The notes: generated from the sequence alone by a model not told the origin. Positions 1-40,184 are shown, counted from the first letter of the stretch. The stretch: DNA of 40,184 nt from a virus (IMGVR_UViG_3300046791_000222:1-40184); one strand, 5' to 3'. Numbers and translations are program-made.

Positions 1-178
1 GCACCGGATCAGGCACGCCACCAGCTGCAGCGGGTCCAGCACCAGCCTGCGGGGCCGCGCCGAAGCCCGTCTTTTCATGCAGCTTGCGCGCCATCTGGAT
101 GTAGCGATTGCCCGCTGGCCCCGACTCCGCGCCGATCGTGCGGAACTGGTTCTCCAGCAGCTGCATCTTGGTCGCGCG
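1..178. repeat. Terminal overlap, left copy
   Basis: These 178 bases are repeated at 40007-40184 with one mismatch (C at 128, A at 40134). A virion gene reads through the junction without interruption when the copies are merged, so this is most simply the overlap of a circular or circularly permuted assembly. The single mismatch could be population variation or a sequencing error. It is too variable and too gene-internal to look like a designed terminal repeat. Confidence 0.9.
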
Positions 179-1459
179 CGTCCGGGCGTCATCAGTGGGC
201 CATGGCAACCACATCGCGGCGTAGTTGTCCCACTCCTGCTTGGTGACGTTCGCGCCCGATTCCTTGCGCAGCACGCCAGCAAGGACGTCACGCCCGATCG
301 TGAAGAAATTCTTGCCAGTGGAACTCGCCGCGTAGCCCAAGGGAACTCCGACTGCCTGTCCCATGTTGGCCTGCCACGCAACGTCGGTGATCGACGGCTC
401 GTATCCCCCGGAGAGCATCGCCTGCATCTGCGGCAGGCCCGTGGCAAGGCGGTTGCCTGCGTTGAACGATTTTTGCTGCGCCTCGGTGAGCTTCGGGGGA
501 TTCGGCAACCCGGTCGCGGGATCGACCGCGCTCGACAGATCGCTCAAGCGAACCATCGTTGCCTTCGGGTCTTTCGCGCCACGATCGTAGGCGAAGACTT
601 CGCCGCTCACCGGATCGGCGACATGGACCCAGCGCTCCTGTTCCAACTTCCTTTCTTCCAGCTTGGTGCGCGCTGCACGATCTGCAGCTGCGATCGAAGC
701 CTGCTGCTGGCGCAGCTTCATCTGCTCGCGCAGGATTTCCTGATGCTGCTCGGCACTGACCGCGCGCGTCTTGATGCCTTCCAGTTCGTTGATGCGCTTT
801 TGCAGGAACTCCATCTGCTGGGTGCGCTTGAATCCCGGATCGAGGCGCACGTTGCCTTCGTTGTCGATCTCGCCGCCCTCGACCTTCATCGGCTCGCTCA
901 TCTTCGCCACGCGCTGCGCCATCGGTGCCGCCATGCCCTGCATCCAATCAGGGCCGATCCCGGCAAGGCCCACGCCGATCGCGGCGTTGCCTGCATCGAA
1001 CGCTCGACCGCGCATCTGCTCTTTCAGCGGCCCGTAGTCGGGGTCTTCCATCTGCTTGTCGCGCCGCCCACGCAGCGTCGCAAGCTCGGCATCGACCTCG
1101 GCGTAGGGCGAGGCCTTCGCAGGAGCGGCTGTGCCGCGCGCAGCACCAGCGCCATAGCCACCGCCCTGTGCGGCGCGCGCCTGCGGGATAACCGACTGTG
1201 GCGCGCTCGGGGGCGAGGCAGCTGCATTGGTCGCGGCCTGCACCGCAAGCGACTGCGGGATCGCTGCCGGGGGCGGCGTGCCGTAGGAGGAGTCGAGCAT
1301 CTCGACGTTGCCGCTTTCGTCCTGCGGCAAGCTCGGATCGCGCTCGATCGTCATGCCGGGATTCATCGCGGCCTGCGCGGCGAGGCGCTTCCTCAACTCC
1401 TCGCGCTTGGCGTTCACCAAGATGTCACTGCCCAACAGATCGGGCGGGAAGTTGATCAC
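1..1459 (-). CDS. Putative ejection/internal virion protein (N-terminal part, split by window edge)
   Basis: Leftward ORF starting at GTG (1459) in a GTGA overlap with the stop of the preceding gene. It runs off the left edge and finishes at 39975 on the right, giving 496 aa in total. I see an Ala/Pro/Gly-rich N-terminal third, then a strongly charged coiled coil at roughly residues 220-285 (rich in Q, E, K, R), then a conserved-looking C-terminal section with GRDVLAGVLRKESGANVT followed by a WDNYAAMWLPWP stretch. That C-terminal pattern resembles DNA-transfer/ejection proteins of short-tailed phages as I remember them. It sits between small virion genes and the 617-aa ejection candidate, which fits. 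The function is inferred from position and composition; no catalytic motif is visible. Confidence 0.8.
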   Translation of the reverse strand, partial: MINFPPDLLGSDILVNAKREELRKRLAAQAAMNPGMTIERDPSLPQDESGNVEMLDSSYGTPPPAAIPQSLAVQAATNAAASPPSAPQSVIPQARAAQGGGYGAGAARGTAAPAKASPYAEVDAELATLRGRRDKQMEDPDYGPLKEQMRGRAFDAGNAAIGVGLAGIGPDWMQGMAAPMAQRVAKMSEPMKVEGGEIDNEGNVRLDPGFKRTQQMEFLQKRINELEGIKTRAVSAEQHQEILREQMKLRQQQASIAAADRAARTKLEERKLEQERWVHVADPVSGEVFAYDRGAKDPKATMVRLSDLSSAVDPATGLPNPPKLTEAQQKSFNAGNRLATGLPQMQAMLSGGYEPSITDVAWQANMGQAVGVPLGYAASSTGKNFFTIGRDVLAGVLRKESGANVTKQEWDNYAAMWLPWPTDDARTRATKMQLLENQFRTIGAESGPAGNRYIQMARKLHEKTGFGAAPQAGAGPAAAGGVPDPV

Positions 1460-3423: not shown

Positions 3424-3424
3424 C

Positions 3425-4357
3425 TTAGTAGCCGCCGCTGCGATCGTAGTAGTCGGTGAGGTTGTACGCAGCCGAGGGGATGCTGCTCGCAACTTGCCCC
3501 ATCGAGGGGATCAAGCTGCCCAAGGAAAATCCGCCGCCGCCGAATCCGCCGCCCGCTGCAGTGCCCGCGCCGATCGATCCCACCGTGTCGGTCGCAGCAC
3601 CAGCAAGCGATCCGGCAGCAGCAGGCGCGGTGATCGCCGCCATTCCCATCGACAGGAGAACCGGAATGATCGCCTCGGTCAATTCGGTGCGCTGGTTCTG
3701 CGCCACCATGTTCTGCTTCAGTTGCATATCGGTGCCGCCCGTGCCAGCGCGGCGGAACCAATCTTCCATCGCAGTTGGATCGGCCTCGGGAAATTCTCCG
3801 TACAGCTGCTCGTAGTCGCCCAGCTGGTCTTCCTTGTCGAGGCCTGCGTAGCGCGCGGCTTCGCTGTCGTAGCTCCCCGCGCCGTGCGCCTTGTTGTAGA
3901 AGTCCGAGTAGTCGGGGCCGAAGTTGTACGGATCGCTCTTGTTCTGCGGCCCTTGAATCACTGTCGGCACATCGCCCGAGTAGTCCATGTGCGCGCCGAA
4001 TTGCTGATCCTGATAGCCCGGATCGAGCGCATCGGGCGAGGAACTGGGCACGCCCTCCTGCTCGGGCGGTGCGTAGGTTTTCTCCGGCGCTTCGTAGTCG
4101 GGAATGTCGCCGAAGCTGCCCTTGGGGTTCTTCCACAGGTCATAGTCCTGCACGGGCGCGGCGCGCAGCTGGTCCGCGAGCGCGCGCTGTTGCGCGAGCT
4201 TCGCGGCCTGCCCCGATCCCAGTTGCAGCGACGAGCGGCCCATGGGCGAGAACGCAGCGCTGCCTTGCGTCAACCACGGCGCGAGGCCCTGCGTGCCAGC
4301 GAAGCCGCCCATCTGCTGCGGCCCCGCTCCTGCTGTAGTTGCGCGATCGCCAGCCAT
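3425..4357 (-). CDS. Putative internal virion/tail protein (310 aa)
   Basis: 310 aa, ATG at 4357 in a TGATG overlap with the hub gene. The N-terminal two thirds is polar, Asp/Tyr/Pro-rich and probably disordered. Residues about 228-275 form a hydrophobic Ala/Gly/Ile segment (IIPVLLSMGMAAITAPAAAG) that could insert in a membrane, followed by a short Ser/Tyr-rich end. Polar body plus one hydrophobic Gly/Ala stretch is typical of ejection proteins. No enzymatic motif is visible. Confidence 0.8.
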   Translation of the reverse strand: MAGDRATTAGAGPQQMGGFAGTQGLAPWLTQGSAAFSPMGRSSLQLGSGQAAKLAQQRALADQLRAAPVQDYDLWKNPKGSFGDIPDYEAPEKTYAPPEQEGVPSSSPDALDPGYQDQQFGAHMDYSGDVPTVIQGPQNKSDPYNFGPDYSDFYNKAHGAGSYDSEAARYAGLDKEDQLGDYEQLYGEFPEADPTAMEDWFRRAGTGGTDMQLKQNMVAQNQRTELTEAIIPVLLSMGMAAITAPAAAGSLAGAATDTVGSIGAGTAAGGGFGGGGFSLGSLIPSMGQVASSIPSAAYNLTDYYDRSGGY

Positions 4358-6024
4358 CAGGCGATCCCTCCCGGCTCAAAGACAATCTTCCAGCTGGTGA
4401 AGAGCGTGCGCGCGCTTCCGGTGAGCGTGAACGACAGGCTCATGTACACACCCAAGCCCAGCACGCCCACCCAGCCAGTGAACGTGAAAGCTCCTCCGGT
4501 CCACAACGCCCGATCCCACTTCGCGACATCCCACATCGCCTGCACGGTGGGAACGTAGGCGGGCGTACCGGGCGGTGCGCTCGCGCTCCACTCGGTGTTG
4601 ATCTGCAGCTTCACCTGCGGGGTATCGACCGCGATGAACATCGGCATCACCAGCAACGGGCGCTTCAACGCCATCAGGTCATTGCCCGGTGCGACGAAGG
4701 AGGTCTGCGCGCGTCCCTGCACGCTCACTCCCGGCGCGCCCGTGGAAAGCTCATCGTCAGTGGGCGCAGCGAAGAGCTTGCCCACCTTGCCATCGAGCGT
4801 GCCGAAGAAGAGCGCGCCATTGAGCGTCTCGGCGCACACCATCGGGATCGCAAGGAAGCGCGACCATGCGCGCGGGATCACGCTGAAAACGTGCTGGTGC
4901 GAGGCCTGCGCGTTGTTGTAGGGCGTGGTGACGAGCATGAACTGCTCTTCTGGAAAGTAGGTGAGGTTCCAGAACGATTGCCCGTCAGTTGCGCGCACTT
5001 CCGCCCCGATCACCTCGTTGTAGCGCGTGGCGGCGTCGTCGCCGAGTCCCTCGGGATCAAGCGCACTCCTGCCCTGCATGAGGCGCGAAACAAATTCGAT
5101 CCCCTGCGGAGTCACCATCGCAAGGTCGCCACCGTACTTCGACATCCAGCGCCGTCCAGCCGGGGGCTTGCCGACGTACCAGCGCCCAGCGATGCGAAAG
5201 GTTGCAGCTGCGCTCGGATCGGTGCCCTCGTAGATGAGAAGGTCGCCCCCGGAGCCAGCGATGATCAGCTTGTCATCGATGCCGTCGCCAGCATCCACCG
5301 TGTAGGAAGCCATCGCTTCCAGCTGACCACCGTGGACGAAGAGCGGCCCGAAATCGAAGTTCGCTGCCGTTCCCGTGATCGCGTTCGTTGCGAGATACCA
5401 CGCATCCTGCGTCGCGTTCTGGATGAACCACAGGCGGTTCTTCCACACCATGACGAAGTCCCAGTTGGGCGCAGCGGCTGCAGCTGGCGCGGGGTTGATC
5501 GTCGGGGTGCGATTGACCCAGCCGCCTGCTGCGTCATAGGTCCAGTACCCGCCGCCAGCTGCGCAGATGCACAGGTAGTTGATCGCCGTTGTGGAGAAGT
5601 TCGTCCAGCTGAATTGACCGGGACTGATCTGACCGGGGATCGCGACCATGACGGGCGGAACGAATCCTTCTGCCTGCGCGGCGGTGACGTCATAGATGTT
5701 GCCGTCATCGCACGCAGCGAAGATTTTCGAGAGCGCCGGGTTCGGATGGAAGTAGGTCATCAGCGAGACGACCTTGTTCGCGAGCGCGCCCGCACCGCCA
5801 AGGTTCGTCACCCAGCGCTTCCAGCCGGGACGAAGCTCGATCCCGGAGCGGCGCACGGTGAAGTTGTCGAGGATGTTCGCCGCGCGCGGGTCTTGCGCGA
5901 CGAGCGGCTGCGTTGCATCGAGGCCCTTGATCGGCGCAGGCAAGATCGCGTACTGGTGCGTCCTCGTCTGCGCCGAGAGGCGCGGAGCGTTGCGGTACGT
6001 TGCGCGGACGGGCTGCAGCGGCAT
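4357..6024 (-). CDS. Tail hub / packaged-DNA stabilisation protein (P22 gp10-like)
   Basis: 555 aa. The ATG at 6024 follows the stop of the adaptor gene with no gap (TAGATG). Features include NILDNFTVRRSGIELRPGWKRW near residue 50, typical of gp10-like hub proteins that begin by reading out packaged-DNA plug contacts, followed by repeated short beta-strand blocks such as KIFAACDDGNIYDVT, KLIIAGSGGDLLIYEG and GALFFGTLDGKVGKLF that look like propeller blades. In P22 gp10 closes the portal channel and carries the tail needle and fibres. The position directly after the connector/adaptor gene supports this. Length is compatible with the family (about 470-600 aa). Confidence 0.8.
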   Translation of the reverse strand: MPLQPVRATYRNAPRLSAQTRTHQYAILPAPIKGLDATQPLVAQDPRAANILDNFTVRRSGIELRPGWKRWVTNLGGAGALANKVVSLMTYFHPNPALSKIFAACDDGNIYDVTAAQAEGFVPPVMVAIPGQISPGQFSWTNFSTTAINYLCICAAGGGYWTYDAAGGWVNRTPTINPAPAAAAAPNWDFVMVWKNRLWFIQNATQDAWYLATNAITGTAANFDFGPLFVHGGQLEAMASYTVDAGDGIDDKLIIAGSGGDLLIYEGTDPSAAATFRIAGRWYVGKPPAGRRWMSKYGGDLAMVTPQGIEFVSRLMQGRSALDPEGLGDDAATRYNEVIGAEVRATDGQSFWNLTYFPEEQFMLVTTPYNNAQASHQHVFSVIPRAWSRFLAIPMVCAETLNGALFFGTLDGKVGKLFAAPTDDELSTGAPGVSVQGRAQTSFVAPGNDLMALKRPLLVMPMFIAVDTPQVKLQINTEWSASAPPGTPAYVPTVQAMWDVAKWDRALWTGGAFTFTGWVGVLGLGVYMSLSFTLTGSARTLFTSWKIVFEPGGIA

Positions 6025-6771: not shown

Positions 6772-6775
6772 TTCG

Positions 6776-8606: not shown

Positions 8607-9608
8607 TTACGGTGAGAGCAGGCGTCCCTGAAAGTAATCGCCGTTGCAGGTGAGCGCGCCAGCCCACGCGAGGATGCTGACCTCGGCGTCTTGGTTGATC
8701 GCGTAGCGCTTATTCGGCGACAGCGTCACCATGTCGCGCGCCGAGTGCGGACGCCACTTCAGGAACTTCGTATTGAGGAAGAGCGCGGTTTTCGCCGCGA
8801 GTCCCGTTCCCCAGCTGGAGGATGCGAAGTAGATGCCGCCATCGAGAACGACGTCAGCGTCCATGTACTTGATCGTGGGGAAGCCCAGCTGCGCCTTGCC
8901 CGGATCGGTGAAGCGCTGCTGCGCCTGCAGGCTCGCCATGTAGACGCCCCACATGAAGTTGTCCACGATGATCACGTTCGGGCGATCCTGACCGCGAACG
9001 AGGTTCGCCCAGACGTCGTTGAACGCGGCTTGGATCGTCGCGGGCGTCGCAGCTGCAGCCATCAGGCTGAAGTACGGACGCCAGAACGCCCAAGTCACGC
9101 GATCGATGCCACCGTAGATTCCGGTTGCCACGCGCCCGGTCGCGCCAGCTGCGGGGACTGCGGCGTTGATGCCCACGATCGCCTTGCCGCCAGCTGCGGT
9201 GCCGTCGTTGTAGAAACCGAATGAGAGGATGTTCGCCATGGTCGATTCGGCGACGGTGATTCGCGCGTCCAGCAGGTCGATGAACGCTTCCTTGCCCGAG
9301 TTCTGGAGTTCTTCCAGCCCCGAGATCACCACCGGGACTGCGGCCTGCTTCAGGTTGAAGCGCGCGCTGGAGATGACGTCTTGCGCGGCGACAGGCAGCA
9401 AATCGTAGCCGGAGTAGAAGCCGCCATTGCCGTTCTCGGCGAAGCTCAACTCCTCGAAAATCTCCGATCCACCCGAGATGGGCTTCACGTTGCCGTTCGC
9501 CTTGATGTAGGCGAGGCCAGCGTTGTTGTTGGTGACGTTGTCGCTGATCTGCTTGGTGCGCGACTCGATCGTCGTTGCCACTACATCGGTGACGGTTGGG
9601 AAAGCCAT
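8607..9608 (-). CDS. Major capsid protein (333 aa)
   Basis: 333 aa, ATG at 9608 with GGGAG 7 nt upstream. It follows terminase, portal and scaffold in canonical order and is the best-insulated gene in the operon (148-nt leader with hairpins, terminator behind). The N-terminus ATTIESRTKQISDNVTNNNAGLAYIK, a central FNDVWANLVRGQDRPNVIIVDNFMWGVY and the C-terminal KRYAINQDAEVSILAWAGALTCNGDYFQGRL fit a HK97-fold coat protein (E-loop region with GGSEIFEELSF, then P-domain strands). The assignment comes from gene order, size and these patterns. No cleavable delta domain is apparent; a separate scaffold gene is present. Confidence 0.9.
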   Translation of the reverse strand: MAFPTVTDVVATTIESRTKQISDNVTNNNAGLAYIKANGNVKPISGGSEIFEELSFAENGNGGFYSGYDLLPVAAQDVISSARFNLKQAAVPVVISGLEELQNSGKEAFIDLLDARITVAESTMANILSFGFYNDGTAAGGKAIVGINAAVPAAGATGRVATGIYGGIDRVTWAFWRPYFSLMAAAATPATIQAAFNDVWANLVRGQDRPNVIIVDNFMWGVYMASLQAQQRFTDPGKAQLGFPTIKYMDADVVLDGGIYFASSSWGTGLAAKTALFLNTKFLKWRPHSARDMVTLSPNKRYAINQDAEVSILAWAGALTCNGDYFQGRLLSP

Positions 9609-11352: not shown

Positions 11353-11543
11353 CAGATCGGCGTCTCCACCGGAACGAGGTTCAGTTCAACCTCGACCAGC
11401 TGGTAGGCATACGGGATGTCCTTCTCCGCGCAGTGCGCGTTCAGGCAGCGCACCGGGCACCAGCTGCCGCGCGGGCGCTGGATGAGCAATTGCGAACCGC
11501 ACTCGCCGCACAACAGGCGCGGAGCGTCGGCGTAGGCCTTCAC
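11352..11543 (-). CDS. Small zinc-ribbon protein (63 aa)
   Basis: 63 aa from a GTG at 11543 (GTGA overlap with the portal stop). Cys pairs CGECG (residues 12-16) and CLNAHC (about 33-38) form a plausible zinc ribbon; the rest is short and acidic. Small zinc-ribbon proteins between portal and scaffold are common in phages but their job is unknown. Confidence 0.8.
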   Translation of the reverse strand: MKAYADAPRLLCGECGSQLLIQRPRGSWCPVRCLNAHCAEKDIPYAYQLVEVELNLVPVETPI

Positions 11544-13678
11544 TGCGGCATCCCCGGCAGGTTAGGCATCTTGGGCATCGCACTGGGCGGGCGCACGGGC
11601 GCTTGCGGGCCGGGGCGCGGTGCCGAGATCGCGCCACCCAATCCCGGAACACCGGGAGGAGCTTGCGGGGGCTGTGTGACCCCAGCGCCCATGGGCTGGC
11701 CTCCGGGTGCCGGGGGCGGTGCAGGCGGTGTCGCCGGATCGAACTGCGGCGGCAGCATCTGCGCGATCTGCATGGCGATCGGCAGCGGCACGCCGCCCTC
11801 GACCATCATCTTCAAAATCTCGGCCTGCTTTTTCTTTGCGTCGGCGTGCTGGTTCTGCGCTGCTGCCAAATCCTTCTTGTCCTGCGGCGTGGGCACGGGC
11901 GGGGGTTTGGGCTTCGCCATGTCGGCCTGCAGCGCGAGGATCGCCTGATCCAGCACGCCCTCGATCTGCTTGCCGCCCTTGAAGCCGCTCGCGACCCACT
12001 GCACGATCTTCAACATCGGGCCTGCGGTGCCGGGGAACTGCTGCACCATCGGGACCGAGGAGGAGATGAAGCCGCTCAAGCTCGCGAGGAAGTCCACGCG
12101 CTGGGCTTTCTCCAGCTGCCAATCGGGGGCTTGGATATTTTCCGCGCTGATCTTCACGCGCATCGCGACGGTGGGATCGTTCTTCAGAAGCTCGATCGCC
12201 TGTTGCGCGAACTGCGCATCGGGGGTCTTGTCGATCTGGCTCACCTGCATGATCGTGCTTGCCTGCCAGTGGCGGCAGATCACTTCGGCGCGCATCCTGT
12301 AGTTGTCGGTGACAAAGCGCGCGATCTCCTCGCCGCTCTTCTCCGATCGCGCGTTGCCGTACTGGGCTTTCAGGCGCTGCGTGGTTGCAGTTTCGCGCGA
12401 GCTAGCCATGCCGCGCTGGATGTCGCTGATCCCGAGAAGCTCAAAGACTTCCACGCTCAAGGTCTGCTTGCGCGCGGTCAGGTACTCCAGCGCCTTGACC
12501 ACCATTTCGAGCGGCATCCAATCGACCTGACCCTTGATGCCGCCCTTCTCGGCGAACATCGCCCAGTTATCGACCGGGATCAGCTGGTTCATCGCCGCCT
12601 GATTGAGCATCCTCTGCACGCCGTCGGCGGTCTTGTCATACACGCCCACCAGCTTGAGCGCCTCGGTCAGCATCGTGCAGCGGGAGGCGATGAGTTCCAG
12701 TTCTTCGTACTGCGATTTGGCGAACAGGTAATCGGGGCGCGGCAGGTAGGCGTTGGTGAGGTGCGTTGCCATGAGCGGACGGCGCACCGGGAAGAAGTCT
12801 TTCAGCTGCAGCGGGTCTTCCTTGGCGTCGAGGAGCGTGTCGTGGCCTGCGACGTACCAGTAGGCCCAGCGCGTGGTCAGGCACCAGATTTCCCAGACGT
12901 CGGCCTGATCCTCGGTCTGCGCACGCAGCGGGTCATCATCACGCAACGCGCGAGACGGTGCGCTTTTCAATGCGAGCGGAGCGTTCACGGCTTTTTCGCC
13001 GAAGCGCTTCATCAATTCCTGCTTGGTCATCGGGATGCGGCGCGCGACCCAGCGCTTATCCTGCCAGCGGCGGCACGGTGAGTAGAGAAAATCCTCCCAG
13101 CGGACGTAGTCGAGCGGGCAGCGCTCCTCGGTGATCACATCGATCGCGAGCGTCTGGCCCGTTTGCGGATCGATGACTCCCTCGATCGGCACGCTCTCGG
13201 AATTGAATTCATAGCGCGCCCAGCAAAGGCCGAGGCCCGCGACCATGCGATCGAGGATCGCGTCCTGAAAAATGTAGTACGGGCTATTTTCCAGATCATC
13301 GGATTCGTAGTTGAAGATGCGCTCAAGGATCAGCGCGGCGACGCGCGCGACATCGTCTGCCGGATCGAGGTTGGCGCGATCGACGCTCACCTTCGGGATT
13401 TGTCCGTACAGGGCTGACAGGGCGGTCTGGACGTTGGACCAAAACAGGGGAAATTCGCCCTTCACGCCCACGCCCGTCCTCTCGGCGTCGGCTTGCTGGA
13501 GGAGGAACTTCTTTTCGATCGAGCGCGCGAGGGTGTGCCACTTCTGGAACCAGCGCCGCGCGGTCTGCAGTTCGCGGGTCCAGTGTTCCGGCTCCATGTG
13601 TTCGTTGAGCAGTTCCTGCGGATCGTCCTCGCCTTCGGCAATCGGTGCGGCTGCAGCTGGTGCGCTATAGGAGTCCAT
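11540..13678 (-). CDS. Portal protein (712 aa)
   Basis: Start at ATG 13678, chosen over an in-frame upstream start because GAGGCGAG lies just before it; it overlaps the end of terL by 14 nt. The 712-aa length matches large portals of P22-type or BcepC6B-type podoviruses. Recognisable blocks are FPLFWSNVQTALSALYGQIPKVSVDR (clip/stem entry), a middle CPLDYVRWEDFLYSPCRRWQ, long helical C-terminal segments with LEVWE-like repeats (LFELLGISDIQRGMASSRETATTQRLKAQYG), and a Pro/Gly/Gln-rich tail ending NLPGMPQ. The SSRETATTQRLKAQYGNAR block is a characteristic portal signature. It forms the dodecameric DNA gate at the capsid vertex. Confidence 0.9.
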   Translation of the reverse strand: MDSYSAPAAAAPIAEGEDDPQELLNEHMEPEHWTRELQTARRWFQKWHTLARSIEKKFLLQQADAERTGVGVKGEFPLFWSNVQTALSALYGQIPKVSVDRANLDPADDVARVAALILERIFNYESDDLENSPYYIFQDAILDRMVAGLGLCWARYEFNSESVPIEGVIDPQTGQTLAIDVITEERCPLDYVRWEDFLYSPCRRWQDKRWVARRIPMTKQELMKRFGEKAVNAPLALKSAPSRALRDDDPLRAQTEDQADVWEIWCLTTRWAYWYVAGHDTLLDAKEDPLQLKDFFPVRRPLMATHLTNAYLPRPDYLFAKSQYEELELIASRCTMLTEALKLVGVYDKTADGVQRMLNQAAMNQLIPVDNWAMFAEKGGIKGQVDWMPLEMVVKALEYLTARKQTLSVEVFELLGISDIQRGMASSRETATTQRLKAQYGNARSEKSGEEIARFVTDNYRMRAEVICRHWQASTIMQVSQIDKTPDAQFAQQAIELLKNDPTVAMRVKISAENIQAPDWQLEKAQRVDFLASLSGFISSSVPMVQQFPGTAGPMLKIVQWVASGFKGGKQIEGVLDQAILALQADMAKPKPPPVPTPQDKKDLAAAQNQHADAKKKQAEILKMMVEGGVPLPIAMQIAQMLPPQFDPATPPAPPPAPGGQPMGAGVTQPPQAPPGVPGLGGAISAPRPGPQAPVRPPSAMPKMPNLPGMPQ

Positions 13679-15068
13679 CTCGCCTCGCGTCGTGGAGCAT
13701 CTCAAGTGAGAATGCGTAGTGCGGTGGGCCGATCTGCGGCTCAAGCTCCGCGACGATCGGCGTAGGGACGTCCTCCTTCAGGGCGACGCCGCAATAGGAG
13801 AAGGCATCGCCCGTGTGGCTGTGTTCGTTGTGATTCGGCTCGGCAGAAAAGGCGTGGCGCTCCTCGTCCCACTTGAACTGCCACTCGCGCAAGCTGATCA
13901 ATCCGCGTGCGCAGGATGCGCGATCGAATTCGGTTTTCCTCGCGAAGATGCGCGCGGCGTTGATCCGATCGGCGATCGTGGTGTGCGGGGTGACCCTGTA
14001 GCGCGCAGCAAGGCCGCTCTTCAGGAACATATCCACGACGGTGAGGTGCGAGCGGAAGGTCTTCGCGCGCGCATCGTGGGGAAGCCACAATGTGCCGACA
14101 GTCCAACCCCTTGCCTTCAGGCGCTCGATCCACTGCTCGGCATCGAGGCCAGAGTCTTCATCGTGATCGAGCATGCGATAGCCGCCGGGGCACGGTTGCA
14201 CCCACCACCATGCCGCAGCGTCGCGATAGCCGATGTCGCTGACCAGATGAATCTCTGCGCCAAACGGATCGAAGAGCGGCCCAGCCTTGATCCTGCCTTC
14301 GCGTTCAGCCGCCTCGATGTACTTGCCCAAGATCGATCCGACATTCGCAGCCGAGAAGTCGCACTCGTACTCCTGCCGATACAGTTCATCGGGCATGGTG
14401 CGGCGCTCTTCAGCCAGCACCGCCTCGTTGATCAACTTCGTCTGGCTCACCGGATGCGTTGCGCAGTACCACGCAGCCATTTCCTTGGCAGCTTCATGCA
14501 TGGAATGCGCGTGGTTGAATCCACGCGGCGTGGTGAGGAATAGCGCGGTGCCATCGTTCTCGGCAAGGATCGGTCGAACGAATTCGTAGGACTTGGGCGC
14601 GGTCAAGGCCCACTCGGAGAACGTAACGTGCTTCGGATTCGCGCCAACGAGCGAATCGAAATTGTCCGCACCGACGCAGCGCCACAGCGAACCGTTGACC
14701 AACTCCACCTTCATCTCGTCCTCATGGCGCTTCTTCACGATCGCTGCCGGGAACGCAATGTCGATCAGGCGCTTGCCGTCACCCGTGAGCGCATCCCAGA
14801 TCACCTTCCTCGCCTGCTTGTAGGAGGGGAGCGTGTGCCAGACCTCGCGCGGGCTACGCAGCATCTGCTCAAGCTCAATGAACATCGCCGCGCGATCCTT
14901 CCCGGCGCGACGGTGGGCGACAACGGAAGCACGCTTGCCGTCATCACGGAAATACCTGATCAACGGCTTTTGCCACTCGCGCGCTTTGAACGTGATCGCT
15001 ACCTCGCGCTCGCGCTGCGCCTGCTGCTCCTCCTGCTCGCGCAGCTGGGCCATCTCGGTGCGCGTCAT
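13665..15068 (-). CDS. terL: Terminase large subunit (467 aa)
   Basis: DNA-packaging ATPase/nuclease. Walker A variant AHRRAGKD at 51-58, Walker B VTFSE with Glu at 152, coupling motif TTP at 179-181, and RNase H-fold nuclease acids D278 (LVSDIGYRD), D332 (WLPHDARAK) and D421 (HTGDAFSY). Length is usual. The ATG at 15068 overlaps the stop of the upstream 117-aa ORF (ATGA) and has no clear SD, so translation is probably coupled. The packaging mode (cos, pac or terminal repeat) cannot be read from this. Confidence 0.95.
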   Translation of the reverse strand: MTRTEMAQLREQEEQQAQREREVAITFKAREWQKPLIRYFRDDGKRASVVAHRRAGKDRAAMFIELEQMLRSPREVWHTLPSYKQARKVIWDALTGDGKRLIDIAFPAAIVKKRHEDEMKVELVNGSLWRCVGADNFDSLVGANPKHVTFSEWALTAPKSYEFVRPILAENDGTALFLTTPRGFNHAHSMHEAAKEMAAWYCATHPVSQTKLINEAVLAEERRTMPDELYRQEYECDFSAANVGSILGKYIEAAEREGRIKAGPLFDPFGAEIHLVSDIGYRDAAAWWWVQPCPGGYRMLDHDEDSGLDAEQWIERLKARGWTVGTLWLPHDARAKTFRSHLTVVDMFLKSGLAARYRVTPHTTIADRINAARIFARKTEFDRASCARGLISLREWQFKWDEERHAFSAEPNHNEHSHTGDAFSYCGVALKEDVPTPIVAELEPQIGPPHYAFSLEMLHDARRDGLL

Positions 15069-15933: not shown

Positions 15934-15974
15934 CTTCGATGGATTTGCCCAACAAAACCAACACAGGGACTGTC

Positions 15975-16680: not shown

Positions 16681-16696
16681 CCAACTTACCTTGGAG
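16681..16696 (+). repeat. Start-associated leader, copy 1
   Basis: CCAACTTACCTTGGAG, ending 6 nt before the ATG at 16703. Contains the SD (GGAG) and a CCAA/TTGG inverted repeat that could pair and partly hide it. Confidence 0.9.
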
Positions 16697-16702
16697 CAGC
16701 AG

Positions 16703-17665
16703 ATGCAAACCAGCACCCCGGAACTCAACGCGATCGCAGCCGCAGTGCGGCAGATCGGCTCGCCCCTGTACGTCGCCCTCGGCATGGGCGTCGATTCGGT
16801 CGCCGTCCTCGTCGGCCTCGCGCAGCGCGGCGAGCGGCCCGACGCGATCGTGTTCGCCAACACGGGCGACGAGAAGCCCGAGACGTATGCCTACATCGAC
16901 ACGCTCAATGCGTGGCTCGATCGCGTCGGCTTCCCGCGCGTCACGATCGTGAAGAACCCGCGCCCGAAGTCGGGCGACGTCTCGCTCTCCGAATCCTGCT
17001 TGCGCAACGGCGTGCTGCCAGCCCTCGCCTACAAGGCCCACCAGTGCAGCTTGGTGTGGAAGATCGACCCGCAGGAGAAGTGGATCGCCCAGTGGGCGCT
17101 CGCGATCGAGGCGCGTGCAGCTGGCGCGCAGATCACTGTGTGCGTTGGCTACGATGCTGGCGATCGCGACAGCGCACGCTGCGCTCGCGCCAAGAGCGAA
17201 GGTCGCCAGATTCCCGGCACCGTCAACCGCTACCCGCTGATCGAGTGGGGCTGGGATCGCGAGGAGTGCATGCGCCAGATCGCAGCCGCTGGCCTGCCCG
17301 TGCCGATGAAGAGCGCGTGCTACCACTGCCCCGCGTCCAAGCCCGTCGAGATCGTGTGGCTGAAGACCATGCACCGCGACCTCTTCGATCGCGCTGTCGA
17401 GATGGAGCGCGGCGCGCATGCACGCGGCCTCGTCTCGATCGCAGGGCTTGCCGACATGGGCAACGAGACGTTCGCCCAGTATGACGACGGCAAGGAGTAT
17501 CTGGGCAAGCTCTTCCTCGCCGAGTTCCGCCCGTGGAAGTCGCTCCACGCCAAGCTCAAGCGCGCACAGAAGGATGGCTACACCCAAAAGGCGATCGCGA
17601 TCCAGAAACTGATCGACGCCCGCCGCCCCGCATTCGTCGCAGCGCGTGACGCGCTGTACGCATAG
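16703..17665 (+). CDS. PP-loop ATPase, PAPS reductase-like (320 aa)
   Basis: The ATG at 16703 is set by the conserved leader and fixed 6-nt spacing. The P-loop variant is ALGMGVDSVAVLVGL (GMGVDS at 27-32, in place of SGGxDS). Then come IVFANTGDEKPET (50-61), HQCSLVWKIDPQEKW (113-127), and RYPLIEWGWDREEC with PMKSACYHCPASKP (about 176-214). This is the layout of phage PAPS reductase-like PP-loop proteins, which share adenylating chemistry with DndC, QueC and TtcA enzymes. Six or more Cys residues, including CYHC, could hold a metal or Fe-S cluster. It leads the cluster with the DpdA-like gene. True sulfate reduction is unlikely in a phage; nucleobase or nucleic-acid modification is my inference. 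Confidence 0.85.
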   Translation: MQTSTPELNAIAAAVRQIGSPLYVALGMGVDSVAVLVGLAQRGERPDAIVFANTGDEKPETYAYIDTLNAWLDRVGFPRVTIVKNPRPKSGDVSLSESCLRNGVLPALAYKAHQCSLVWKIDPQEKWIAQWALAIEARAAGAQITVCVGYDAGDRDSARCARAKSEGRQIPGTVNRYPLIEWGWDREECMRQIAAAGLPVPMKSACYHCPASKPVEIVWLKTMHRDLFDRAVEMERGAHARGLVSIAGLADMGNETFAQYDDGKEYLGKLFLAEFRPWKSLHAKLKRAQKDGYTQKAIAIQKLIDARRPAFVAARDALYA

Positions 17666-18374: not shown

Positions 18375-18860
18375 GTGAAACAGACCAGCATCAAGATCGT
18401 ATCCGCCGCAAAGCAAGCCGCCCTCGCACAGCTGAACACCGCACGCGCCGCCGATGGCCTGCCCCCGCTCAAGCGCGTCACCAACATCTGGTGGGCGATC
18501 CATGGCGAAGCGTGCATCCGCAACGTCGAGCGCTCGATCGCCAAGCCCGTGAGCGCGGTGACGCGCATCAACAAGGCCCTCAAGGCGCTGGGCCGCGAGG
18601 AGCGCCTCGTTCGCGGTCGTGGCTACTACTACCTCATCGAGGGCGAGTCGAGCAGCTTCTACACCAGCAGCATCTACACGATGTGGATCGAGCCGAAGGA
18701 TTTCGCCTTCGCCGCGAGCGAAGTCAACGACATGTTCCGCCGCGCCGGGATCGAGGCGCGCATCGAAATCCCGCAGGCCGACATCGACCTCGATGTGCAG
18801 AACCGCGCCATCATCATGCGCGAGATCGCCGCCGACAAGGCACGCAAGGGGGCCAAGTGA
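18375..18860 (+). CDS. Unknown protein coupled to DpdA (161 aa)
   Basis: GTG start at 18375, 161 aa, stop overlapping the DpdA start (GTGA), so the two are translated together. The N-terminal helical part (VSAAKQAALAQLNTARAA) precedes a segment ALKALGREERLVRGRGYYYLIEG that looks like the recognition helix and wing of a winged-helix fold, followed by an acidic/helical end. A partner or DNA-targeting subunit for the transglycosylase is possible but only inferred. Confidence 0.8.
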   Translation: MKQTSIKIVSAAKQAALAQLNTARAADGLPPLKRVTNIWWAIHGEACIRNVERSIAKPVSAVTRINKALKALGREERLVRGRGYYYLIEGESSSFYTSSIYTMWIEPKDFAFAASEVNDMFRRAGIEARIEIPQADIDLDVQNRAIIMREIAADKARKGAK

Positions 18861-19603
18861 ACTTCTTCCCCGGCCTGCACCAGCCCTGCGATGCGCAGCA
18901 CTTCGATCGCGCCTTCATCAGCGTCAATCGGCTGCGCGATCGCAAGGCCGACTTCGTCGTCAACGATTGGATCATGGACTCAGGCGCGTTCTCAACGATC
19001 GCCACGCATGGCTACTACCCGGAGGAGCCGCAGGTGTACGCCGCGCAGATCAAGCGCTGGAGCCGCTGTGGCAACCTCCTCGCGGCAGCTGCGCAGGATT
19101 TCATGTGCGAGGACGAGCAGCTGATCCGCACGGGCGCAGGCCTGCGCCACGGCGTCGCCATCCATCAGGGCTTCACCGTGTCGCGCTACATCGATCTGCG
19201 CATGGCGATGGACGCGATCAACTGCCCGACGTACATCCTCCCGGTCCTGCAGGGCCGCACGATCGGCGACTACATCCGCCACATCAAGATGTACGAGGAG
19301 CTTGGCTACCTGCCGCACGGCGCGTGGGTGGGCGTCGGATCGGTGTGCAAGAGGAATGCCGAAGTCACCTCGATCTGGATGGTGCTGTCCGAAATCCTCG
19401 ACTACCGCCCAGACCTGAAGCTGCACGGCTTCGGAGTCAAGACCACCTCCCTGCAGGAGTGGCGCATCAACGAACTGCTGCACACCGCCGACTCGATGGC
19501 GTGGAGCTACGCTGCCCGCCGCGAGGGCAGGAATCAAAACGATTGGCGCGAGGCGAAGGCCTTCGGCGATCGCATGACGCAGTACATCAACGCATCAGCA
19601 TGA
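18857..19603 (+). CDS. dpdA: DpdA-like 7-deazaguanine DNA transglycosylase (248 aa)
   Basis: Resembles phage DpdA proteins, relatives of tRNA-guanine transglycosylase that swap guanine in DNA for a 7-deazaguanine such as preQ0. Visible TGT-fold signatures: DSGAFS (41-46, general acid Asp), AQDFMCED (79-86), ILPVLQGRTIGDYIRHI (127-143), AWVGVGSVCKR (156-166), LHGFGVKTTS (189-198) and TADSMAWSYAAR (210-221, candidate nucleophile D212). No zinc-binding C-terminal domain, as usual for the short phage forms. GTG start in a GTGA overlap. No queC, queD, queE or folE gene is present, so the base would come from the host. Assigned from motifs, not from a database comparison. Confidence 0.75.
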   Translation: MNFFPGLHQPCDAQHFDRAFISVNRLRDRKADFVVNDWIMDSGAFSTIATHGYYPEEPQVYAAQIKRWSRCGNLLAAAAQDFMCEDEQLIRTGAGLRHGVAIHQGFTVSRYIDLRMAMDAINCPTYILPVLQGRTIGDYIRHIKMYEELGYLPHGAWVGVGSVCKRNAEVTSIWMVLSEILDYRPDLKLHGFGVKTTSLQEWRINELLHTADSMAWSYAARREGRNQNDWREAKAFGDRMTQYINASA

Positions 19604-22339: not shown

Positions 22340-23695
22340 CTACGCCGCGATCTTGGCGAGGTTCAAGTTGCGCAGATCGTAGCCGTTGCGGCTCGCCTCG
22401 GAGCGCGCCTCCTCGATGAAGGTGATGTAGAAGGCGTAGGTCACCGCCGGATCGTCGTGCCCCATGATCTCTGCCAGCTGCACGACGTCCATCCCGGCCT
22501 TGATCATCATCGAGGCGAAGGTGTGGCGGTTCTGGTACGGGCGGCGGTAGGTCACCCCCGCCGACTTGCACCTGCGCTTCCAGATGATCCCGTAGTTGCG
22601 CGCGATGTAGGCGTGCGGCGTGCCGTCCTTCCTCGGGAAGACGAAGTTGTTCTTGCGCTCCACGCCAGCCGCCATGACGCGCTTGAGGCGCTCGCGCAGG
22701 ATCGCTTCCACCGGGCCGATCATCGGGATGCGGCGGATCGCCTTGGGCGTCTTGCCCTTGCCCATCTTGCCGTCGCTCCACGCCTGCGTGACGCGGATGC
22801 AGCTGGTGTAGCCGTCCTTGTCATCGGTGTCCAAGTACACCGAGTTCCACTCCAGCGCGAAGATTTCGCTCGGGCGCATCCCGGTGTACCACCACACCTC
22901 CAGCAGTTCAGCGACGTCCACCTTGCCCTTGGCGCGCAGGTGCGCGAGGAACTTCGCGCGCTCGGTTGCGGTGTAGGGGTTGGGCTTGTAGCCCGTGTCC
23001 TTGCGATCCTTGTGCCAGAACGCAGTGACCATCGGCTTCAACTTCAGGTTGGTCATCGGATTGGCGAAGCCCTTCAACTTCTCCGAGTCGAGGATCGCGA
23101 AGTCGATCGCGTTGCGCAGCGGCGTGAGGACGCACCCGAGGGAAGTCGCCGACAATTTCGTTTCCTTCGCGAGGTGCTTGACGAAGTTGCGCACGCTCTC
23201 GATGCTGATGTCGGCGGCGCTCTTGCCCGTCCAGTACGGCAGGATGTAGTCATCGATGTAGCGCTTGCTGTTCACGACCGAGACGTCCTCGACCTTGGTG
23301 GGCCGATCGGCGAGCCAATCGGCGAGCAGCACATCAACCTTCAGCGCGCCCGTGTCGATCTCGCCCTTGCCGCGAAACCACTCGGCACGCGGCGAGCCGC
23401 TGAAGAATTCGTTGTACTGCTTGGCGTCCAGCGTGCCGCCCACCTGCGATTGCTTGTCGCCGATCGCACCGAGGCGCGCGAGGCACTTGTCCTTCGCGTT
23501 GTTCGCATCGGCCTTGTTGTCGGCGGTGAGGTTCCACTCCTCGCACTCGCGCCCACCGTTCATAAACCGGATCGCGAACGTCGTGCCCTTCTTCCCGGCC
23601 TTGACGCGAATGCCGCAGCCGCGCTCGATCGGCACGCCGTGTACGTTCCAGATGCCCGTCTTCTCGTCCCGCTTCACTTCTGTCCTTGTAGCCAC
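22340..23695 (-). CDS. int: Tyrosine integrase (451 aa)
   Basis: Site-specific recombinase for lysogenic integration. An AP2-like N-terminal arm-binding region (GTTFAIRFMNGGRECEEW) precedes a core-binding domain and the catalytic domain: TGMRPSEIF (R274), a Lys-rich strand MGKGKTPKAIRRIP, YQNRHTFAS (R390), MGHDDPAVTYAFY with H413 and nucleophile probably Y423. The usual box II His (HxxR) is replaced by Tyr (YxxR), a tolerated variant in some families. The start overlaps the xis end by 22 nt. No attP core is identified; the gap between xis and 23.98 kb and the 138 bp after int are the places to look. Confidence 0.95.
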   Translation of the reverse strand: MATRTEVKRDEKTGIWNVHGVPIERGCGIRVKAGKKGTTFAIRFMNGGRECEEWNLTADNKADANNAKDKCLARLGAIGDKQSQVGGTLDAKQYNEFFSGSPRAEWFRGKGEIDTGALKVDVLLADWLADRPTKVEDVSVVNSKRYIDDYILPYWTGKSAADISIESVRNFVKHLAKETKLSATSLGCVLTPLRNAIDFAILDSEKLKGFANPMTNLKLKPMVTAFWHKDRKDTGYKPNPYTATERAKFLAHLRAKGKVDVAELLEVWWYTGMRPSEIFALEWNSVYLDTDDKDGYTSCIRVTQAWSDGKMGKGKTPKAIRRIPMIGPVEAILRERLKRVMAAGVERKNNFVFPRKDGTPHAYIARNYGIIWKRRCKSAGVTYRRPYQNRHTFASMMIKAGMDVVQLAEIMGHDDPAVTYAFYITFIEEARSEASRNGYDLRNLNLAKIAA

Positions 23696-25465: not shown

Positions 25466-26395
25466 TCATCGCTTCCAGATGCGGTTGATGATGCTGATCA
25501 CGACGGGCCGATACTTCATCGACAGGCTCGGCACCTGCGTGCGCCAGTTCACCTTGCGCAGGCGCTCGATCACCCGCATCGAGGGGAAGCCGTCGTTGTT
25601 CTCAAAGCGATCGTGCGCAATGTGCGCGAAGGACACCGCGACGAGCAGGATCGTGCCGCCCTTGGGGAACAGTTGCCCCATCAGCTGCAGGTACTGCTCG
25701 GCGAGCCTGCGCTTGGCGGGGCTGGACAGCGCAATGTCGAGCCGCGAGAGCGCTTCCTGAATCGGGCCGACAGGATCAACACCGATCGCAGCTGTAAGCG
25801 CGCCGCGCGACAACAAGCTCGCCGACAGGCGATTGGGATTCGTCCCCTGCGAGAAGTGGACGCGCTCGTTCAGCGGATGCGAGTAGCTCTTCGCGACATC
25901 GCCGATCAACTTGCCGCTGGGTCCGGTCCACGACTTCACGATCACATCGGCGCTGATGCCCTTGCGAGCGTTCAGTGCGAGGAAGAAGTTTTTTTCGGAC
26001 TCGAGATTTTCGCTCTCATGCACCATCGCTTGGAAGCTCATCCCCATCTGCTGGAAGGCGCACGCGCGCTGGTAGCCGTCCACGATCCACAGCTTGCTGT
26101 GATTGCCCCACTTGGTGCGGCGGCACAGCGTGACCGGGTCGAGTACTTTCCCGCCCGCTTGGATCGCGTTAATGATCTGGCCCACCATGCCCGTCTCGCC
26201 GCGCTGGTAGGCCGGATCGACGTCGAGGTGCTTGAAGTCCTCCTTCGCGATCGTCTTCAGCACACCCGGCGAGATGCCGTTGACGGTGAGGATCGAGCGC
26301 GTGCGCCGCGCATCGTGGGCACGACGCACCGCTTCACTGGTGACGCGAGTGTCCTTGCGTTTCTTCGCTACAGCTGCAGTTGCGGCGGTTTCCAT
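25466..26395 (-). CDS. ParB/sulfiredoxin-like domain protein (309 aa)
   Basis: ATG at 26395 with GAGG 5 nt upstream, 309 aa. The ParB-N-like core shows LDVDPAYQRGE (57-67) and LWIVDGYQRACAFQQMG (102-118), matching the 'xxxPxQR...' and 'xIxDGxxRxxA' signatures of the ParB/Srx fold, which binds nucleotides and in some phages acts as a nuclease or DNA-binding switch. The helical C-terminal part is unlike chromosomal ParB and no parA is present, so plasmid-type partition is unlikely. Confidence 0.8.
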   Translation of the reverse strand: METAATAAVAKKRKDTRVTSEAVRRAHDARRTRSILTVNGISPGVLKTIAKEDFKHLDVDPAYQRGETGMVGQIINAIQAGGKVLDPVTLCRRTKWGNHSKLWIVDGYQRACAFQQMGMSFQAMVHESENLESEKNFFLALNARKGISADVIVKSWTGPSGKLIGDVAKSYSHPLNERVHFSQGTNPNRLSASLLSRGALTAAIGVDPVGPIQEALSRLDIALSSPAKRRLAEQYLQLMGQLFPKGGTILLVAVSFAHIAHDRFENNDGFPSMRVIERLRKVNWRTQVPSLSMKYRPVVISIINRIWKR

Positions 26396-30736: not shown

Positions 30737-30737
30737 G

Positions 30738-30968
30738 ATGATCATCGCGCGGCTGACCAACGGCGCGTTCATCGTCGGCATCGATGATGTGAACGTGCGC
30801 CACATGGACGCAGGCAGGCCCATGGTGATCGACCTCGCCAAGCACGGTGGGCACGACCGGGTCTACCTCCTGCACGGCAAGACGCTGGAGGATGTCCGCA
30901 AGCTCTTGATCGATACATTCGGCGAATTGCCGATCGCACAGCCGTTGCCGGGGGAACAACCGAAATGA
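30738..30968 (+). CDS. Unknown small protein (76 aa)
   Basis: 76 aa, ATG one base after the previous stop. Alternating strands (MIIARLTNGAFIVGID, MVIDLAKHGGHDRVYLLHG) and a helix (KTLEDVRKLLIDTFGEL). A compact alpha/beta protein, unrecognised. Ends in an ATGA overlap. Confidence 0.75.
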   Translation: MIIARLTNGAFIVGIDDVNVRHMDAGRPMVIDLAKHGGHDRVYLLHGKTLEDVRKLLIDTFGELPIAQPLPGEQPK

Positions 30969-32920: not shown

Positions 32921-32935
32921 CGGGGGATTTCCGGG
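32921..32935 (+). repeat. G-rich iteron, copy 2
   Basis: Identical 15-mer; 32 bp before copy 3, with a partial copy (ATCGGGGG) between them. Confidence 0.9.
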
Positions 32936-32969: not shown

Positions 32970-32974
32970 ATTTT

Positions 32975-34906: not shown

Positions 34907-34919
34907 GGTGCGTTCTCCT

Positions 34920-38112: not shown

Positions 38113-38121
38113 GTCGTTTCC

Positions 38122-39975
38122 TCATTGCGGATTGGTTGCGCCGATCGCGCTGGTCTGCGAAGCGTAGTAAGTGATGCGCTTCATAATCTCTTGCTTCATC
38201 TGGTTCGGCACGGGCACGTTCTGCAGGGCGGCGATCGCCTCGCGCGGGTTGGCGAACATGCCCACCATGCGCTTGGCGATGTCGTCCATCGCGCGCGCCT
38301 TCGCCGGATCGGCGATGAAGTGCTTGGCAGCTGAACCCGCGATCGCCGCGCCGCCCAAGAGCGGATGCCCCATCAGCATCCCGAGTCCACCAAGGCCAGC
38401 GGTGCCGCCCTCGCCAAGCGAGAAGCCGCCCTGCGCGGCCTTCTGGGCTGCAGCTGCCTGCTGCAGCACCCGGTTCATCGGCTGCAGGTTCGCTACCGTC
38501 GAAGACCCCGGCGGGATGATGTCGCGCGCGCCCGTCGCGCGCGTGGAATCCTCCAGCGCCTTCTTCGTCTGCTGCAGGAGCAGTTCCTGCTGCGGGTTGT
38601 ACGTTGGCGAGCCGTACTTTGTCGTCGGCGTCGGCCCAGCTGCAAATTCACTGCGCAGCTTGGGCAGGATCACCGACACGGGATCATGCACGCCTTCAGC
38701 CGCCATCTCGGGCCGCGCGTTCAACGTCTTCAGCCAATCCTCGCCCTTGGCGGCTTGGCCCACTTCCTTCGACAGCTGGTGATAATCGCCCATCAGGTTG
38801 CTGTAGCTCCTGCCGCCGCCCGTGAGCTTGTCCATCGTGGCGTCGAACTCTGGCTTGATCCGCTGGAGCGAGCGCGACAGGAACCCGGCAGCGTCCGGTG
38901 CGTAGTTGCCGCTCATGCGATCGTAGAGTTGCCCCAGCTGCTGCTTCAGCTGCACGCGCCGCCATGCATCGAGCGGCTCGATCGAGCCAGTGTCGCGCGC
39001 GATCTTCGCTGCGGCGAGAAAACTGTGGCGCATCTCCAAGAGCTTGTCGCGGTGCGTGCCGATCGCCGTCTCGATCTCGGCATCGAACGCATCCAGCACG
39101 CCGCCCACGTTCTTCTTCGTCGGCAGCGCATGCAGCGCCATGTCCTCCTTGTGCATCCCGGTGACGGCGTCGCGCACATCCTCGACGGCAGCTTTCGCAC
39201 CGCCGCCGAATTCAGCTTCCCACGCATCCTGCACAGCCTTTGCCTGATCGCCTGCGCGGCGACGAATCGGCTCGCCATAGCTCTGGCCTTGGCTGCGCAG
39301 CGCTCGCTCGGCTTCAAGCAGCGAGGGATTGCGCGTCGCGCCTGCAGTGGTCTGCTGGAACCCCGGCAGCGTCACCGGATCGGCGTGCGCCTGCAGATCG
39401 GCGAGAACGCCCGCGCGCTCGCCCTGCGGGATCACGCCCCTGAAGGCTTCCTCTGCCATCTCCTGCTTGCGAACGGGAAAGAGCGAGGTGCGCTTCGCCA
39501 GCTGGTCGCGCACAGCACCTGCTGCAGCTGGCAGCATCTGCAGGCCCTTCGCCACGCCACCGCCCGTCGCGCCACCGATCAACGCGCCCTTCATCGGGTC
39601 TTCGGGTTCCATCAGCGCCCCAGTGCCCGCGCCGATCAGCGCCGATCCTGCGACCGTGCCAGCACCGGGGATCAGCATCGTCGGGGCGAGCGCCATGGCC
39701 TGACCACCCAGACGGCCCCAGCCGCCGGGGTCCGCCATGCCAGCGATCCGGTTGTGTTCGGCGAGGCCTTCCTTCGTCTGGTTGCCGAAGGTGCGCGCGA
39801 TGTTCTGCTTGACGTCCTCGGCTCCCGCGCCGATCCGCTCGGTCATCGTGCCTTCGCCCGTCATGTGCTTTTGCGCGAGCGCGCGCAGGTAATCAGCGGA
39901 GCGCTTGTCGCCAGCACGCTCCGCGTTGGAGATGCCCTGCATCCACTGGTCGAGCGTGAAGTCCTTCGGGTCCAT
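38122..39975 (-). CDS. Large ejection/internal virion protein (617 aa)
   Basis: 617 aa, TGATG overlap with the split gene. Two Gly/Ala hydrophobic stretches (about residues 85-150, GAGTVAGSALIGAGTGALM; and 525-555, GLGGLGMLMGHPLLGGAAIAGSAA) flank a long helical, charged middle. This matches ejected proteins that build a trans-envelope channel. No peptidoglycan-degrading motif is visible. Confidence 0.8.
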   Translation of the reverse strand: MDPKDFTLDQWMQGISNAERAGDKRSADYLRALAQKHMTGEGTMTERIGAGAEDVKQNIARTFGNQTKEGLAEHNRIAGMADPGGWGRLGGQAMALAPTMLIPGAGTVAGSALIGAGTGALMEPEDPMKGALIGGATGGGVAKGLQMLPAAAGAVRDQLAKRTSLFPVRKQEMAEEAFRGVIPQGERAGVLADLQAHADPVTLPGFQQTTAGATRNPSLLEAERALRSQGQSYGEPIRRRAGDQAKAVQDAWEAEFGGGAKAAVEDVRDAVTGMHKEDMALHALPTKKNVGGVLDAFDAEIETAIGTHRDKLLEMRHSFLAAAKIARDTGSIEPLDAWRRVQLKQQLGQLYDRMSGNYAPDAAGFLSRSLQRIKPEFDATMDKLTGGGRSYSNLMGDYHQLSKEVGQAAKGEDWLKTLNARPEMAAEGVHDPVSVILPKLRSEFAAGPTPTTKYGSPTYNPQQELLLQQTKKALEDSTRATGARDIIPPGSSTVANLQPMNRVLQQAAAAQKAAQGGFSLGEGGTAGLGGLGMLMGHPLLGGAAIAGSAAKHFIADPAKARAMDDIAKRMVGMFANPREAIAALQNVPVPNQMKQEIMKRITYYASQTSAIGATNPQ

Positions 39976-40184
39976 CAGCGGAATCCGGCTCCCGGAACGT
40001 ACATCTGCACCGGATCAGGCACGCCACCAGCTGCAGCGGGTCCAGCACCAGCCTGCGGGGCCGCGCCGAAGCCCGTCTTTTCATGCAGCTTGCGCGCCAT
40101 CTGGATGTAGCGATTGCCCGCTGGCCCCGACTCAGCGCCGATCGTGCGGAACTGGTTCTCCAGCAGCTGCATCTTGGTCGCGCG
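39975..40184 (-). CDS. Ejection/internal virion protein, C-terminal end of the split gene
   Basis: Continuation of the gene that starts at 1459. The C-terminal residues after the edge read MQLLENQFRTIGAESGPAGNRYIQMARKL, an Ala/Gly segment, then VPDPVQMYVPGAGFR and stop at 39975, overlapping the next start (TGATG). Confidence 0.85.
   Translation of the reverse strand, partial: RATKMQLLENQFRTIGAESGPAGNRYIQMARKLHEKTGFGAAPQAGAGPAAAGGVPDPVQMYVPGAGFR
40007..40184. repeat. Terminal overlap, right copy
   Basis: Repeats positions 1-178 with one mismatch (A at 40134). Confidence 0.9.

What the first reader, a model, noticed from the sequence alone, without database searches (positions are those of the whole stretch)
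1..40184. Genome-wide excess of the palindromes CAGCTG and GATC
Phages usually avoid short palindromes. By eye I tallied roughly 120 CAGCTG, against about 14 expected at 64% GC. For GATC I counted about 20 in 16681-17640 and 11 in 30001-30960, against about 3 expected per 960 bp. Many are nested (GCAGCTGCAGCT, GCGATCGC). The excess is on both strands and in unrelated genes, so protein composition does not explain it. It may reflect a host signature similar to the cyanobacterial HIP1 octamer (GCGATCGC), a DNA-uptake or packaging preference, or freedom from restriction given a modification system.
Basis: seen in the sequence. Interest (0 to 1): 0.75.

Follow-up and report, generated by a model that had tools for sequence, protein, structure and literature searches.

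The report
Phage shaped by heavy restriction-site avoidance
This bacterial virus really does carry far too many copies of CAGCTG and many extra GATC, and the same genome has almost wiped out more than half of the other short palindromes, so the excess looks largely like the other side of adapting to hosts with many DNA-cutting enzymes rather than a host-like address tag.

Summary
The counts hold: CAGCTG 123 (13.6 expected by base composition, 20 by first-order Markov, 33 by synonymous-codon shuffles); GATC 480 (133, 243; 454 against 290 inside genes). Of 34 testable 6-bp palindromes, 18 are virtually absent (2 seen, 340 expected), as are CCWGG (1/150), YGGCCR, RCCGGY, GRGCYC, RGATCY and CAGCTC (2/47). 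The 15 retained palindromes are collectively raised (median 1.5x), CAGCTG most. Relatives 81-85% identical in capsid protein show another taboo list: no CAGCTG or CCWGG, but CGGCCG, CCGCGG and GCCGGC used freely, often where this phage has CAGCTG. Several phages that ban CAGCTG overuse CAGCTC. I read this as restriction avoidance with CAGCTG as a "refuge" word. Codon shuffles that forbid the avoided words explain only part (33 to about 57 of 115), and a small site-by-site test gave no support; a roughly twofold residue is unexplained. GATC excess is mostly lineage-typical context bias, somewhat stronger here. A HIP1-like host signature is not supported: about 300 sampled Pseudomonadota genomes never approach these densities. 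The phage carries a DpdA-type DNA-modification gene, but nothing ties it to these words.

The parts
1..40184 (.). Genome-wide word signature: CAGCTG 123, GATC 480, CGATCG 126, CTGCAG 66 enriched; CCWGG, YGGCCR, RCCGGY, GRGCYC, GWGCWC, RGATCY, GGCGCC, CCGCGG, CCCGGG, YACGTR, CGTACG, ACGCGT, GTCGAC and non-palindromic CAGCTC, CACGAA, CACGTC, CCAGTC, ACGGGG, CCTTA nearly absent
1..178 (.). Left copy of a terminal repeat (177 of 178 identical to 40007-40184): record is a near-complete, circularly closed phage genome
40007..40184 (.). Right copy of the terminal repeat
4357..6024 (-). amidase-type virion/lysis protein (phrog_5107)
8607..9608 (-). major head protein (phrog_9953), used to find relatives
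11540..13678 (-). portal protein (phrog_12082)
13665..15068 (-). terminase large subunit (phrog_2)
16703..17665 (+). PAPS-reductase-like ATP pyrophosphatase, SspD-like (possible DNA-modification protein)
18857..19603 (+). DpdA-family transglycosylase (7-deazaguanine insertion into DNA)
22340..23677 (-). tyrosine integrase: phage is probably temperate
25466..26395 (-). protein with a weak, inconclusive DpdB match (E 0.0047)
20564..20575 (+). example of nested GCAGCTGCAGCT

Best explanation
The genome has been remodelled to avoid the recognition sites of many restriction enzymes met in its hosts. Words that are not on the taboo list, above all CAGCTG (also CTGCAG and CGATCG), serve as refuges: when a common coding solution such as GCG-GCC-G, GCC-GCG-G, CAG-CTC or GAG-CTG is banned, the sequence settles on an allowed one, often GCA-GCT-G or CAG-CTG, both of which spell CAGCTG. 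Shown: the excess, the near-total bans, their specificity, and the different taboo list of close relatives. Inferred: that restriction enzymes are the agent, and that refuge use causes the excess. In the model it accounts for only part of the CAGCTG excess. The GATC excess is a separate, more ordinary matter: a codon-context bias common in GC-rich proteobacterial phages, concentrated here in non-RGATCY contexts because RGATCY is banned.
For: Near-absent classes coincide with Type II site classes (from established knowledge: EcoRII, EaeI, Cfr10I, BanII, HgiAI, XhoII, NarI, SacII, SmaI, BsiWI, MluI, SalI): CCWGG 1/150, YGGCCR 0/102, RCCGGY 0/94, GRGCYC 0/57, RGATCY 2/42. Within xAGCTy the total of SAGCTS is near expectation (117 vs 99) but nearly all of it is CAGCTG (115 vs 34), with CAGCTC 2/51 and GAGCTC 0/14. 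After CAG, Leu is CTG 57 of 62 times and never CTC; after GAG it is CTT 20 of 31. The reverse exists: several phages that ban CAGCTG overuse CAGCTC (L020 55/21, L026 24/10, L027 21/7, L039 23/7). Phage L103, found by its DpdA, that bans CAGCTC, CCGCGG, GCCGGC and GGCGCC also has CAGCTG 21/8. Where relatives have CGGCCG or CCGCGG, the commonest word in the window is CAGCTG (17/114 and 9/107, sites not independent). Forbidding the avoided words in codon shuffles raises CAGCTG from 34 to 54-60. The 97% identical sister L008 has the same bans and excess.
Against: The constrained shuffle stops near 57 of 115 CAGCTG; the worst case is frame 1 (NCA-GCT-G), 47 seen vs 5. GCA-GCT-G is strongly preferred (37 vs 3.9) over the equally allowed GCA-GCA-G (5 vs 5). 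BUCT555 bans CAGCTC, CCGCGG and CGGCCG yet has only 1.3x CAGCTG. At 21 conserved Ala-Ala-G sites, CAGCTG in the window is not associated with a banned word in relatives (Fisher p = 1, small sample). Across 40 viral sequences the link between fraction avoided and enrichment of kept palindromes is weak (rho 0.29, p 0.07). The constrained null leaves GATC unexplained (290 vs 454). Host and its restriction enzymes are unknown.
Confidence: 0.55

Rival explanations
1. Positive selection for CAGCTG (and perhaps GATC/CGATCG) as a functional mark, for example the target of a protective phage or host DNA modification, on top of restriction avoidance.
For: Two-fold residue after forbidding all detected avoided words; palindrome-specific preference for GCAGCTG over GCAGCAG; excess in all three codon frames; the phage encodes DpdA and an SspD-like protein.
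Against: DpdA-bearing phiLM21, RHph_TM3_3_3, L097, L098, L100 and L104 lack comparable excess against codon shuffles; no G context cleanly separates kept from avoided palindromes (best GG, p 0.011 among 44 tests); most relatives with 81-85% identical capsid protein contain no CAGCTG.
Confidence: 0.17
2. Host genomic signature: the phage mimics a host rich in CAGCTG and GATC, like the HIP1 octamer of cyanobacteria.
For: GATC/CGATCG excess is shared with relatives L009-L014 (order-1 ratio about 1.7-2.0), so a lineage or host component is likely for GATC. Some Lysobacterales genomes (handles from that order) are among the richest in GCAGCTGC.
Against: No sampled genome exceeds about 55 CAGCTG per 40 kb in stretches read or 10 GCAGCTGC per 40 kb genome-wide, and the word is near codon-shuffle expectation there; close relatives mostly have zero CAGCTG.
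Confidence: 0.15
3. Codon-pair or junction-context bias of the phage's translation, unrelated to restriction, drives GCA-GCT-G and CAG-CTG.
For: GCT is used almost only before G; GCG-GCG-G is 2 vs 30 in the Ala-Ala frame although the 7-mer occurs elsewhere in the genome, so some of the bias is frame-specific.
Against: BUCT555 and bacterial stretches do not show the preference; CAGCTG is enriched in all frames; it would not produce exact bans of degenerate palindromes.
Confidence: 0.13

Closest known systems
Restriction-site avoidance in phages (Rusinov et al. 2018, PMC6286503)
   Same: Near-complete loss of palindromic Type II site classes from a dsDNA phage genome
Taboo-free sequence evolution (Manuel and von Haeseler 2020, PMC7560954)
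   Same: Treats banned restriction words as constraints on phage DNA evolution
   Different: A theory of connectivity; its abstract does not describe observed refuge words
HIP1 (GCGATCGC) of cyanobacteria
   Same: An over-represented palindrome
   Different: Here GCGATCGC is 25 per 40 kb and fully predicted by its sub-words; the main excess is CAGCTG and is not a signature of sampled hosts
DpdA 7-deazaguanine phages (Hutinet et al. 2019, PMC6884629)
   Same: The window encodes a DpdA-family protein
   Different: No preQ0 synthesis genes recognised among the proteins scanned here; DNA modification not shown
Bordetella phage BPP-1
   Same: Similarly broad avoidance (20 of 32 palindromes by order-1 Markov)
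   Different: It bans CAGCTG and keeps GCCGGC, CGGCCG and GGCGCC, the reverse of this phage

Membership tests
Restriction-site avoidance by phage | Significant loss of palindromic words matching Type II site classes, beyond codon and protein composition | tested here: met
   18 of 34 palindromes: 2 seen vs 340 expected under codon shuffle; CCWGG 1/150
Restriction-site avoidance by phage | Host encodes restriction enzymes for the avoided sites | not testable with these tools
   Host not identified; in 398 genomes of the order of G004 (Lysobacterales) only G004 has a clear head-protein relative, the other three matches are weak
Restriction-site avoidance by phage | Avoided set differs between phages of different hosts | tested here: inconclusive
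   Relatives L009-L017 avoid a different set, but their hosts are unknown
HIP1-like host signature | Same word over-represented in the host genome | tested here: inconclusive
   Not in about 300 sampled Pseudomonadota genomes; true host unknown
HIP1-like host signature | GCGATCGC enriched beyond its sub-words | tested here: not met
   25 seen, 26.6 expected under maximal-order Markov
7-deazaguanine DNA-modified phage | DpdA homologue | tested here: met
   PF23859, E 1.7e-38
7-deazaguanine DNA-modified phage | Modified guanines in the DNA | not testable with these tools
   Needs mass spectrometry or nanopore data

The most novel reading that the evidence does not exclude
CAGCTG (with GATC) is positively selected as a functional mark, for example the target of a phage-encoded DpdA/SspD-type modification that confers protection, in a phage that otherwise escapes restriction by losing sites.
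Probability: 0.12. Interest if true: 0.8.

Novelty: new member of a known kind. Interest (0 to 1): 0.42.

Why it matters
It is a quantitative case of how many restriction specificities one small, apparently temperate phage can evade by sequence alone, and it suggests that banned words leave a visible counterpart: over-used allowed words. If general, the kept/banned word list of a viral contig could be used to infer the restriction repertoire of unknown hosts. The residual twofold CAGCTG excess, and a modification gene in a phage that still bans sites, are open questions that could be tested.

Tried and rejected
Host signature: compared with about 300 Pseudomonadota genomes and stretches of the CAGCTG-richest ones; not supported. 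Protein composition and gene-level codon heterogeneity: global and within-gene synonymous shuffles leave the excess. Pure displacement: iterative forbidding of up to 46 avoided words, including gapped ones, explains only part. Deamination of methylated C (CGGCCG to CAGCTG, CCGCGG to CTGCAG): single-step intermediates CAGCCG and CCGCAG are not enriched. DpdA-protected words: no association across DpdA phages and no clean context separation. Site-by-site displacement test in conserved Ala-Ala-G contexts: no association, only 21 sites. Integrase scan of viral contigs: no hits. Megablast of window 10001-34000 against phage records: no match. Scan for GCAGCTGCAGCTGC in viral contigs: common, uninformative. 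Literature search for over-represented CAGCTG in phages: nothing relevant. Genes were called by my own simple script, so intergenic counts (8 CAGCTG in 3.5 kb) are uncertain and not used.

Full report
What the window is. It is an entire IMG/VR virus record of 40,184 bp with an imperfect terminal repeat (177 of 178 bases), so it is a near-complete phage genome. It encodes a major head protein related to those of Stenotrophomonas phage BUCT555 and Myxococcus phage Mx8, a portal, terminase, amidase and tail fibre, and a tyrosine integrase. The host is unknown.

Observation. CAGCTG exceeds every Markov order tested; GATC exceeds composition and first order but not the maximal-order model. Inside genes, with proteins and codon usage kept, CAGCTG is 115 against 34 and GATC 454 against 292. 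CAGCTG is enriched in all three codon frames: 57 vs 28, 47 vs 3.2 and 11 vs 2.8. Among 100 sequences and 2553 sequence-palindrome tests, the window and its 97% identical sister L008 show the highest first-order ratios (6.2 and 6.3; next 5.9). So it is an extreme, but at the end of a continuous range.

The other half of the signature. The same genome is almost empty of many other words: CCWGG 1 of 150 expected, YGGCCR 0 of 102, RCCGGY 0 of 94, GRGCYC 0 of 57, GGCGCC 0 of 46, CCGCGG 0 of 43, GWGCWC 1 of 43, RGATCY 2 of 42, CAGCTC 2 of 47. Of 34 palindromes with at least six expected, 18 are avoided (340 expected, 2 seen), one is intermediate, and 15 are kept with a median ratio of 1.54, against 1.01 for non-palindromic words. 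Such breadth is strong but not unprecedented: by first-order Markov 17 of 34 here, 20 of 32 in BPP-1, 13 of 18 in L020, 2 of 40 in D3. Rusinov et al. (PMC6286503) describe avoidance of Type II sites as widespread, with elimination chiefly in non-temperate phages, and no detectable avoidance in coliphages with hydroxymethylated cytosine. This phage, with an integrase and a DpdA gene, runs against both trends, although its DNA has not been shown to be modified.

Comparison with relatives. Relatives L009, L011-L014 and L017 (81-85% identical head protein) have zero CAGCTG and no CCWGG or CAGCTC, but CGGCCG, CCGCGG, GCCGGC and GGCGCC at normal levels. L015 (11) and L016 (1) have some CAGCTG. In codon alignments, the commonest word in relatives at CAGCTG positions is CGGCCG (17, tied with CAACTG), and the commonest word in the window where relatives have CGGCCG or CCGCGG is CAGCTG (sites are shared between relatives, so not independent). 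The mirror case exists too: several phages that ban CAGCTG over-use CAGCTC 2.4- to 3.3-fold, though others do not.

How far displacement goes. I sampled synonymous arrangements that never create an avoided word, adding newly detected avoided words (including gapped ones) until none remained. CAGCTG rose from 34 to about 57 and GATC stayed near 290; a within-gene version gave about 62. The residue is concentrated in Ala-Ala contexts, where GCA-GCT-G is used 37 times against 3.9, while the equally permitted GCA-GCA-G is at expectation. A site-by-site test in 21 conserved Ala-Ala-G contexts found no association, and BUCT555, with similar bans, has only 1.3-fold CAGCTG. The refuge explanation is therefore supported in direction but incomplete in size.

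GATC. Relatives L009-L014 have first-order GATC ratios of about 1.7 to 2.0, like the window's 1.98, and several proteobacterial phages and bacterial stretches have codon-shuffle ratios of 1.2 to 1.4 against 1.56 here. I regard it as mainly a lineage-typical context bias, with flanks shaped by the RGATCY ban.

Host signature and modification. In 56 Gammaproteobacteria genomes the maximum is about 34 CAGCTG per 40 kb; in 249 Pseudomonadota genomes the maximum is about 10 GCAGCTGC per 40 kb against 30 in the window; in stretches of the richest genomes CAGCTG is near codon-shuffle expectation. A host signature is thus unlikely but not excluded. The phage carries a DpdA homologue (E 1.7e-38), a PAPS-reductase/SspD-like protein (E 1.5e-12) and a weak DpdB match (E 0.0047). 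Apart from L103, which shares the bans, other DpdA phages do not share the excess, and no base context cleanly separates kept from avoided palindromes, so a link between modification and the excess is possible but unsupported.

Verdict. The most likely account is extensive restriction-site avoidance with over-used allowed words, plus an ordinary GATC context bias. The CAGCTG excess is only partly explained.

Noticed in passing
window 18857-19603 (+), 16703-17665 (+), 25466-26395 (-): DpdA homologue, SspD-like/PAPS-reductase-like protein and a weak DpdB match in a probably temperate phage; possible DNA hypermodification genes with no recognised preQ0 synthesis genes among the proteins scanned.
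   Followed up: partly
L009-L017, L020, L026, L027, L033, L039, L041: Related phage lineages lack different sets of restriction-site words, often completely; CAGCTC (GAGCTG), a non-palindromic hexamer, is banned in many of them and in BPP-1, Mx8 and BUCT555.
   Followed up: partly
window genome-wide: Non-palindromic words CACGAA, CACGTC, CCAGTC, ACGGGG and CCTTA are absent with 20-26 expected, and CCGACC is 3 of about 31; which enzymes would recognise them is unknown.
   Followed up: no
window 15939-16292 (+): Small protein with a transposase-type HTH domain (HTH_Tnp_1) upstream of the modification-like genes.
   Followed up: no
L139 (contig of 109,416 bp): A terminase relative lies in a contig far larger than these phage genomes, possibly a prophage in a bacterial contig that could reveal a host for the clade.
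   Followed up: no
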